NCBI RefSeq assembly: GCF_014205165.1
Contig: NZ_JACHMZ010000001.1
Coordinates: forward strand, 4,942,501-5,006,500
Length of the DNA stretch: 64,000 nucleotides
Source: Micromonospora carbonacea
GTDB lineage: Bacteria > Actinomycetota > Actinomycetes > Mycobacteriales > Micromonosporaceae
Direction: 5' to 3'
Numbering within the stretch: the stretch's first letter is position 1; every line of letters begins with the position of its first letter. Positions 18,724 to 20,325 of the stretch are shown one piece after another. Below the pieces are notes generated by a model, which worked only from the letters and a program-made list of their open reading frames with translations, was not told the origin of the DNA and ran no database searches. A program made the position numbers and the translations under genes.

Positions 18724-20325
18724 GTGACAGAACCCCGCCAGACCGGCGCCGACGTTCGCTCGCTCACCGACACCCTGATCGCCCACGCGCAGAGCGCCGG
18801 CGGCCAGCTCACGTCGGCCCAGCTCGCGCGCACCGTCGAGTCCGCCGAGGTGACTCCGGCCCAGGCCAAGAAGATCCTGCGTGCGCTCGCGGAAGCGGGG
18901 GTGACCGTGGTCGTCGACGGCTCGGCCAGCCCGCGCCGCCGGGTCGCCGCCGCCCGGTCCGCCACCCCGGCGTCCCGGGCCACCACCGCCAAGACCACGA
19001 AGAAGGTGGCCGCGCCCGCCCCGAAGCAGGCGCCGGCCGCCGACGACGCCCCCGCGCCGGCGCCCCGGAAGGCCGCCGCGCGCAAGGCGACGACCGAGGC
19101 GGTCGCGAAGGCCGCCGTCCCGGCGAAGGTCGCGCGGCCCACGCGGGCCACCAAGGCGACGGTGGCCGCCGCCGCGGGCAAGCCGGCCAAGACCGCCGGC
19201 AAGCCGAAGGGCGAGGGCGCCGAGGGCGACATCGACCCGGAGGAGCTCGCCGCCGAGATCGAGGACGTGGTGGTCGAGGAGCCGGCGGAGCTGGCCCAGG
19301 CCGCCGCGGCCGACGCCGCCAGTTCCGCCACCGACAACGACTTCGAGTGGGACGACGAGGAGTCCGAGGCGCTCAAGCAGGCGCGTCGCGACGCCGAGCT
19401 GACCGCCTCCGCCGACTCCGTGCGGGCCTACCTCAAGCAGATCGGCAAGGTGCCCCTGCTCAACGCCGAGCAGGAGGTGGAGCTCGCCAAGCGGATCGAG
19501 GCGGGCCTCTACGCCGCCGAGCGGCTGCGCGCCGCCGAGGAGGGCGAGGAGAAGCTGGTCCGGGAGATGGTCCGCGACCTCGGCTGGATCTCCCGCGACG
19601 GCGAGCGGGCCAAGAACCACCTGCTGGAGGCCAACCTGCGGTTGGTGGTGTCGCTGGCCAAGCGCTACACCGGCCGGGGCATGGCGTTCCTCGACCTCAT
19701 CCAGGAGGGCAACCTCGGCCTGATCCGGGCGGTCGAGAAGTTCGACTACACCAAGGGCTACAAGTTCTCCACGTACGCGACCTGGTGGATCCGGCAGGCG
19801 ATCACCCGGGCGATGGCCGACCAGGCCCGCACCATCCGCATCCCGGTGCACATGGTCGAGGTGATCAACAAGCTCGGCCGGATCCAGCGCGAGCTGCTTC
19901 AGGACCTGGGCCGCGAGCCCACCCCGGAGGAGCTGGCCAAGGAGATGGACATCACACCCGAGAAGGTGCTGGAGATCCAGCAGTACGCTCGGGAGCCCAT
20001 CTCGCTCGACCAGACCATCGGCGACGAGGGCGACAGCCAGCTCGGCGACTTCATCGAGGACTCGGAGGCCGTCGTCGCGGTCGACGCCGTCTCGTTCTCC
20101 CTGCTCCAGGACCAGCTCCAGCAGGTGCTCCAGACGCTGTCGGAGCGCGAGGCGGGCGTGGTCCGGCTCCGCTTCGGCCTGACCGACGGCCAGCCGCGCA
20201 CGCTGGACGAGATCGGTCAGGTCTACGGCGTGACCCGGGAGCGGATCCGGCAGATCGAGTCGAAGACGATGTCGAAACTGCGTCACCCGTCGCGGTCACA
20301 GGTTCTCCGTGACTACCTGGACTGA
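18724..20325 (+). CDS. sigA: Principal RNA polymerase sigma factor (SigA/HrdB)
   Basis: 533 residues from GTG 18724, with GGAAGG 7-12 nt upstream. A helical region 1.1-like segment is followed by a long Ala/Lys/Pro-rich linker (about residues 75-200) typical of actinobacterial primary sigmas. Then come region 1.2 (about 225-260), region 2 (about 295-370, '[19 protein letters not shown]'), region 3, and region 4 with '[20 protein letters not shown]' ahead of the C-terminus. It directs transcription of housekeeping promoters. Bases 19666-19860 are 194/195 identical to sigB (32400-32594), far above the flanks. The upstream in-frame ATG at 18664 would add 20 residues with no ribosome site. Confidence 0.97.

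What the first reader, a model, noticed from the sequence alone, without database searches (positions are those of the whole stretch)
19666..19860. 195-nt tract almost identical between sigA and sigB
Bases 19666-19860 (sigA) and 32400-32594 (sigB) differ at one position (a Tyr/Phe codon), while the codons just outside use quite different synonymous bases although the protein is also conserved there (compare the 'RLVVS' codons). Protein conservation alone would not fix third positions so sharply. Likely recent gene conversion between two sigma genes 12.7 kb apart, homogenising region 2, which melts and reads the -10 box.
Basis: partly seen in the sequence, partly recalled or inferred. Interest (0 to 1): 0.78.

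Follow-up and report, generated by a model that had tools for sequence, protein, structure and literature searches.

The report
Two sigma genes repeatedly copying region 2
In this Micromonospora-like bacterium and its relatives, a 195-base stretch coding for the part of the main sigma factor that melts and reads promoters keeps being overwritten between two otherwise different sigma genes, so the two copies match inside a species while both change between species.

Summary
Gene conversion is the right explanation, but it recurs; it is not one recent event. In 72 genomes of the genus, sigA and sigB of one genome share the codon at 95.3% of comparable tract codons, against 83.8% with partners shuffled between genomes (p=0.0002, the least that 5000 shuffles allow). 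In the flanks own and shuffled partners do not differ. In a tract tree 48 of 109 genome pairs are sister tips; in a flank tree none, and the genes split cleanly. Where sigA's codon differs between independent lineages, sigB differs the same way in 70% of contrasts in the tract and 9-14% outside. A third sigma gene takes no part; a genus of another family, with the genes 3.6-8.8 kb apart, shows no clear signal (p=0.054). The tract is bracketed by differences fixed between the two genes in the genus. Inside it, SigB-only T363A and Y366F persist. This is a sub-gene variant of bacterial concerted evolution; ten literature searches showed no report for sigma factors. Direction of copying is unresolved.

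The parts
18664..20325 (+). sigA (hrdB-type primary sigma factor gene), open frame; the true start may lie downstream of 18664
   Evidence: NCBIfam NF004560 820.5 bits over cut-off 711; Pfam regions 1.2, 2, 3, 4
31983..33062 (+). sigB (group 2 sigma factor gene), open frame; an ATG at 32046 behind a purine-rich stretch looks like a better start (by eye, not tested)
   Evidence: NCBIfam NF005920 SigB 526.4 bits over cut-off 464; Pfam regions 1.2, 2, 3, 4
19666..19860 (+). converted tract in sigA, codons 335-399
   Evidence: 194/195 identical to 32400-32594; own-genome codon agreement .953 vs .838 shuffled, 72 genomes
32400..32594 (+). converted tract in sigB
   Evidence: same
19651..19656 (+). 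5' bracket in sigA: Ser330 (TCG here) and Leu331; sigB counterpart 32385-32390 AGC ATC
   Evidence: sigA TCN and Leu, sigB AGC and Ile in 72 of 72 genus genomes
19861..19863 (+). 3' bracket in sigA: Val400; sigB counterpart 32595-32597 Gln
   Evidence: Val vs Gln in 72 of 72 genus genomes
19759..19761 (+). codon 366, Tyr in sigA and Phe in sigB (32493-32495): the only difference in the tract
   Evidence: Phe in sigB of 7 of 72 genus genomes, one change on the flank tree; Tyr in sigA of 71 of 71
19750..19752 (+). codon 363, Thr here in both genes (sigB 32484-32486); Ala in sigB of 31 of 72 genus genomes
   Evidence: Thr in sigA of 71 of 71

Best explanation
Recurrent ectopic gene conversion. 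When one gene is broken or gapped, RecA-type repair copies the other gene over it (route inferred from the tuf system, not shown here). Copying takes only where the two genes are still nearly identical: a block of about 200 bases coding for most of region 2 and a little beyond. Each event restores the identity that the next one needs, so the block maintains itself while the rest of the genes diverges. The block ends where the genes carry fixed gene-specific differences (Ser330 codon and L331I; V400Q): either heterology stops the copying or selection removes longer tracts. Shown: recurrence, confinement to the block, no part for the third sigma gene. Inferred: RecA dependence, the self-maintaining threshold. 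Not settled: direction. A probable consequence is that SigB keeps nearly the same core-binding and -10-reading surface as SigA.
For: Own versus shuffled partners, 72 genus genomes: tract .953 vs .838 (sd .005, p=.0002), upstream .726 vs .724 (p=.35), downstream .683 vs .683 (p=.38). 27 one-contig assemblies: tract .951 vs .844 (p=.0002), upstream .741 vs .732 (p=.08), downstream .683 vs .679 (p=.20), which speaks against collapsed short reads. Sister tips 48 of 109 in the tract, 0 of 109 in the flanks with a clean sigA|sigB split. Independent contrasts: tract (30 codons) 100.6 same way, 1.1 opposite, 41.4 sigB unchanged; upstream (33) 18.3/10.7/103.1; downstream (43) 17.8/20.3/153.9. The codon shared by both genes changes repeatedly on the flank tree: codon 379 at least 8 times with 72 of 72 genomes matched, 356 at least 13 with 66 of 72, 338 at least 15 with 56 of 72. 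47 genomes of other genera: tract .900 vs .755; 32 of the 47 have .90 or more. Third sigma gene, 20 genomes: tract .746 vs .747 with sigA.749 vs .753 with sigB, p .57 and .74. G075 keeps 64 of 65 residues with 37 of 59 codons: protein conservation alone does not give the pattern. Third-best place in the genome is the third sigma gene at 84%.
Against: At family scale own partners also match better in the flanks (upstream .684 vs .631, downstream .637 vs .612, both p=.0002), so part of that signal is shared codon usage; the genus set shows no such excess. The first codons of the tract (336-341) match less (.68-.77). The counts of changes rest on a quick tree from the flanks of the same two genes and may be inflated by wrong branches. 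Direction is unknown. Codon agreement in the tract rises with distance between the genes (Spearman +.35, 112 linked pairs, 5.5-40 kb), probably because the genus and far genera differ; closeness is not seen to help. The third gene shows one nominal excess outside the tract (downstream with sigA.592 vs .580, p=.026). No recombination was measured.
Confidence: 0.94

Rival explanations
1. Selection on the nucleotide sequence itself (an RNA structure, antisense gene or codon optimum in region 2) keeps third positions the same in both genes.
For: Codon agreement between sigA and sigB of different genomes is higher in the tract (.836) than in the flanks (.700), so some regional codon constraint exists.
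Against: The codons change between species in both genes together; a fixed constraint would hold orthologues equal, yet orthologues are at .83-.85. No Rfam match at gathering score in 18600-33200. The third sigma gene does not follow.
Confidence: 0.03
2. Genome-wide codon usage makes the paralogues of one genome look alike.
For: Own-partner excess in the flanks at family scale.
Against: No flank excess inside the genus (.726 vs .724.683 vs .683), and none between the third sigma gene and either gene in the tract.
Confidence: 0.01
3. A single recent conversion in the window's lineage, the relatives' similarity having other causes.
For: The window pair is fully homogenised (59 of 59 codons).
Against: 12 other genus genomes and one of another genus are also fully homogenised, G024 for one with different codons; at least 8-15 joint changes at single codons.
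Confidence: 0.02

Closest known systems
tufA/tufB (EF-Tu) gene conversion and concerted evolution (PMC5485169: abstract, introduction and conclusion read; PMC6053082: abstract, two passages and two sections read)
   Same: Two paralogues of central machinery on one chromosome kept alike by conversion.
   Different: There the genes are nearly identical and the identity ends at the ends of the coding sequences; here it is one 195-base block inside genes whose aligned flanks average about 62-65% DNA identity.
RF1-RF2 domain 3 conversion (PMC4530459: abstract with the opening text, and conclusion read)
   Same: Conversion over one domain whose task the two diverged paralogues share.
   Different: Two separate cases, in Bacteroidia and in Chloroflexi, in opposite directions; here it recurs through a genus and in most sampled genomes of other genera of the family.
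26 prokaryotic genes with long-lasting recurrent concerted evolution (PMC6053082, Tables 1 and 2 seen)
   Same: Paralogues of one species closer to each other than to orthologues, in at least five species.
   Different: No sigma factor in either table; the paralogues there are described as alike over nearly the full gene length, and the method uses whole-gene trees, which a 195-base tract need not disturb.
   Same: The same two kinds of gene, 3.6-8.8 kb apart.
   Different: No clear conversion signal in 20 genomes: tract .685 vs .671, p .054; tract protein 87% identical.

Membership tests
Concerted evolution by gene conversion | Paralogues of one genome are closer to each other than to their orthologues in the tract | tested here: met
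   own .952 vs orthologues .850/.829, 71 genomes; sister tips in 48 of 109 genomes
Concerted evolution by gene conversion | Effect confined to a tract; flanks keep the gene tree | tested here: met
   flanks 0 of 109 sister tips and clean split; step in the profile
Concerted evolution by gene conversion | Recurs in at least five species | tested here: met
   at least 8-15 joint changes at single codons among 72 genus genomes; 48 sister pairs
Concerted evolution by gene conversion | Both paralogues have syntenic orthologues; sister pairs supported at bootstrap 70 or more (criteria of PMC6053082) | tested here: inconclusive
   the two genes are linked, 5.5-40 kb apart, in 112 genomes; neighbouring genes were not compared and branch support of the tract tree was not examined
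Concerted evolution by gene conversion | Non-reciprocal, RecA-dependent transfer | not testable with these tools
   needs an experiment
tuf-type whole-gene concerted evolution | Near-full-length identity of the paralogues | tested here: not met
   mean flank DNA identity .654 upstream and .620 downstream, 72 genomes
Primary (group 1) sigma factor SigA/HrdB | NCBIfam equivalog above cut-off with regions 1.2-4 | tested here: met
   NF004560 820.5 bits, cut-off 711; Pfam
Group 2 sigma factor SigB | NCBIfam SigB subfamily model above cut-off; regions 1.2-4 | tested here: met
   NF005920 526.4 bits, cut-off 464; Pfam. SigA also passes this model (481.8 bits), but scores far higher with its own

The most novel reading that the evidence does not exclude
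The block is a selected device as well as a repair by-product: copying keeps SigB's polymerase-binding and promoter-reading surface locked to that of SigA while the rest of SigB diverges, and selection re-opens single positions. SigB-only T363A (31 of 72 genomes, at least 4 changes on the tree) and Y366F (7 of 72, one change) survive although codons on both sides go on being homogenised (in the 31 T363A genomes: codon 356 at least 3 joint changes, 370 at least 5 with 31 of 31 matched, 383 at least 8). Residue 366 is, from recall, the aromatic Y425 of E. coli sigma-70 region 2.3, beside the melted -10 strand, so SigB may be tuned in promoter opening at exactly these sites. Against it: genomes with Ala363 are somewhat less homogenised around the site than those with Thr363 (.952 vs .994 upstream.973 vs .988 downstream), as rarer or shorter conversion would give without selection.
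Probability: 0.28. Interest if true: 0.78.

Novelty: new variant of a known kind. Interest (0 to 1): 0.6.

Why it matters
It shows that the DNA-reading part of a primary sigma factor need not evolve as the rest of its gene does: it can be shared with a paralogue by repeated copying, in a block of about 200 bases, in most sampled genomes of a family. Trees and selection scans that use sigma region 2 in these bacteria can be misled by it. Genomes outside the copying state, whether they left it or never entered it (G071, G072, G117, G075), beside those inside it make a natural experiment on how much homology keeps two genes in concert; and the SigB-only residues that survive point to positions where the two sigma factors may need to differ.

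Tried and rejected
Distance: codon agreement in the tract does not fall with distance between the genes (Spearman +.35 over 112 linked pairs, 5.5-40 kb; the two inverted pairs found are at .97 and .92), so a need for closeness or direct-repeat slippage was set aside. A part for the third sigma gene: no excess in the tract. A third copy or mobile source: none near-identical in the genome, no match in the phage collection in near mode. RNA element: no Rfam match at gathering score in 18600-33200. Direction of transfer: not settled; SigB carries residues not seen in SigA of the genus, which fits either SigA-to-SigB copying or purifying selection on SigA; in three genomes of other genera both genes carry Phe366. 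Genes between sigA and sigB gave no clue. Literature: the listings show no paper on conversion between sigma genes; one search listed 15 of 2,638 papers and one search listed 8 of 11. The one paper holding sigA, sigB, gene conversion and paralog together (PMC13104627) has the first three only in its reference list as far as the passages show.

Rows dropped before counts: stretches of 77 genus genomes, the window's own included, were taken out of the 160, most because both genes fitted one 20 kb stretch, plus the nearest relatives. G191 and G241 (no sigA in the stretch), G195 and G262 (sigA cut by the end of the stretch) and G011 (in-frame stop in sigB) were left out, giving 72; 71 before G035 was added. 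Of the 58 genomes of other genera, 47 were used (38). Of the 39 genomes with matches, 20 were used. G094's third sigma gene was fetched but left out of the genus test. The pooled contrasts use codons with two common synonymous states only. Listings were cut by the tool.

Full report
What is there. The window holds sigA (18664-20325, +) and sigB (31983-33062, +), identified by NCBIfam and Pfam models above their cut-offs. Bases 19666-19860 and 32400-32594 differ at one position in 195. Exact runs of 94 and 100 bases make up the tract; the next longest shared run of the two genes is 26 bases. Outside the tract the aligned parts of the two genes are on average 65% (upstream) and 62% (downstream) identical in DNA in 72 genus genomes. 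The genome is one contig of 7.53 Mb.

How the relatives were taken. SigB as query found sigma genes in the genus, family and class, and a DNA search covered 160 genomes of the genus. I took stretches of 77 genus genomes, the own one included, and of 47 of 58 genomes of other genera, aligned codons and dropped five genus rows, leaving 72. A codon is comparable if both genes have the same residue there and it is not Met or Trp.

Main test. If conversion is at work, sigA should resemble the sigB of its own genome more than the sigB of other genomes, and only in the tract. In the genus the mean codon agreement in the tract is .953 with the own partner and .838 with shuffled partners (sd .005; p=.0002, the least possible with 5000 shuffles). 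Upstream it is .726 and .724 (p=.35), downstream .683 and .683 (p=.38) (with 20000 shuffles and 71 genomes p<=.00005 for the tract). The own sigB is the best or tied best match in the tract for 51 of 71 sigA genes, against 4 upstream and 1 downstream. In 27 one-contig assemblies the tract gives .951 and .844 (p=.0002), upstream .741 and .732 (p=.08), downstream .683 and .679 (p=.20), which speaks against collapsed short reads. Among 47 genomes of other genera the tract gives .900 and .755, but the flanks there also show an excess (.684 vs .631 and .637 vs .612, p=.0002), which I put down to codon usage shared within a genome or genus; 32 of the 47 have tract agreement of .90 or more. Orthologues are less alike in the tract (sigA-sigA .850, sigB-sigB .829) than the two paralogues of a genome.

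Trees. On a tree of the tract, sigA and sigB of one genome are sister tips in 48 of 109 genomes; on a tree of the flanks in 0 of 109, and one branch separates all sigA from all sigB (FastTree, support not examined). On a tree of the flanks, the codon that both genes share changes many times: at codon 379 at least 8 times with all 72 genomes matched, at 356 at least 13 times with 66 matched, at 338 at least 15 times with 56 matched. Over independent contrasts between genomes that differ in sigA, sigB differs the same way in 100.6, the other way in 1.1, and not at all in 41.4 (30 tract codons); upstream 18.3, 10.7, 103.1 (33 codons); downstream 17.8, 20.3, 153.9 (43 codons) (means over random pairings, codons pooled, so no p is given). 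The two genes change together, over and over, in the tract.

The window's own lineage. G000 has 59 of 59 comparable codons equal; its nearest sampled relative by sigB DNA, G202 (98%), has 56 of 59. At tract codons G000 and G202 differ at one in sigA and two in sigB, so the differences inside G202 can be its own, and no event after that split is required. Among the 12 genomes, the state of codon 345 in both genes of G000 and G202 is found in no other, and that of codon 372 otherwise only in sigB of G218; so homogenisation went on after the split from the next relatives.

Limits of the tract. Ser330 is TCN in sigA and AGC in sigB in 72 of 72 genus genomes; residue 331 is Leu against Ile, and residue 400 Val against Gln, again 72 of 72. 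The twelve residues up to Ser330 are identical here in both proteins, yet the blocks that hold them show no net own-partner excess (+.005 and +.003; one Ala codon alone has +.15). The excess begins at Arg334 (+.22) and is over by residue 402. Conversion thus does not, on the whole, go past the Ser330-Leu331 difference although the protein would allow it. Either the cluster of mismatches stops it or selection removes longer tracts.

Controls. A third sigma gene, about 4 Mb away on the chromosome, has 75% tract protein identity to both; in the tract it shows no excess with sigA (.746 vs .747) or sigB (.749 vs .753) in 20 genomes in which sigA-sigB shows .961 vs .850; its one nominal excess lies outside, downstream with sigA (.592 vs .580, p=.026). 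In 20 genomes of genus g43, of another family in the same order, sigA and sigB lie 3.6-8.8 kb apart; the tract gives .685 vs .671, p=.054: no clear conversion, though a trace is not excluded. In the window's family, of nine linked pairs of other genera 20-40 kb apart eight agree at .95 or more (for instance G067 58 of 60, G101 58 of 60, G114 59 of 60), while G075 has 37 of 59 with 64 of 65 residues equal. G117, G071 and G072 have 32 of 51, 23 of 46 and 28 of 54. These genomes are outside the copying state, having left it or never entered it. The two inverted pairs found still agree (.97.92). No further copy of the tract exists in the genome above 84%.

Sites that resist. In the genus the tract proteins differ only at 363 (Thr in SigA, Ala in SigB, 31 of 72), at 366 (Tyr, Phe, 7 of 72) and at four sites in one genome each. 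SigA has Thr363 and Tyr366 in 71 of 71. On the flank tree the 363 state of SigB changes at least 4 times and the 366 state once. In the 31 genomes with Ala363 in SigB, codons on both sides match at .952 and .973 and change jointly: 356 at least 3 times (25 of 31 matched), 370 at least 5 (31 of 31), 383 at least 8 (30 of 31). In the 41 genomes with Thr363 the same stretches match at .994 and .988, so the Ala363 genomes are somewhat less homogenised around the site. Either conversion there is rarer or its tracts shorter than the block, or selection keeps these SigB residues; both fit. A paper on copepod GOT1 paralogues (PMC3728101, passages seen) describes such islands as a possible sign of selection. 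From recall, residue 366 corresponds to Y425 of E. coli sigma-70, in the region that melts the -10 box.

Mechanism. I infer repair-driven, non-reciprocal copying as described for tuf (PMC5485169, introduction and conclusion read). A block of about 200 bases is short next to the tuf genes (a gene length of 1185 is used in a figure legend there). The tract's DNA identity is strongly skewed: of 119 pairs, 94 are at .96 or more and 7 below .90. That would fit a threshold above which copying maintains itself and below which the copies drift apart, as the third gene (82%) and g43 may have done; but the spread is a tail and not two clear groups, so the threshold is a hypothesis. Direction was not established.

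Novelty. Long-lasting concerted evolution has been tabulated for 19 bacterial and 7 archaeal genes (PMC6053082, Tables 1 and 2 seen); no sigma factor is among them, and the method used whole-gene trees. Domain-limited conversion is known for RF1-RF2 as two cases (PMC4530459, abstract and conclusion). The listings of ten literature searches show no report for sigma genes; the library lacks most subscription journals. I rate it a new variant of a known kind.

Noticed in passing
L023 (G011), near 14425: The sigB of one genus genome has an in-frame TGA at the first codon of the tract, in a one-contig assembly: a broken sigB or a sequencing error.
   Followed up: partly
G058; G062, G082, G092, G099: G058 shows sigA but no SigB-strength match. 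In the other four not even sigA-strength matches are listed, so assembly gaps or masking are likelier there than loss.
   Followed up: no
window 20892-22622 (-), 23746-25680 (+), 28008-30398 (+), 33202-35757 (-): Open frames between and after the two sigma genes: a ResIII/DEAD helicase, a PfkB kinase in the later half of a longer frame, a DUF7059-methyltransferase-DUF7782 protein, and a GNAT/CoA-binding/ATP-grasp acyl-CoA ligase-like protein.
   Followed up: no
G063, G065, G102 (other genera): Both SigA and SigB carry Phe at 366, so Phe is found in the primary sigma factor too and may have passed between the genes.
   Followed up: no
G000:C1:962922-963836 (L003): Third sigma gene with 53% protein identity to SigB; it matches sigA's tract at 84% over 184 bases but shows no sign of conversion in the tract.
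   Followed up: yes
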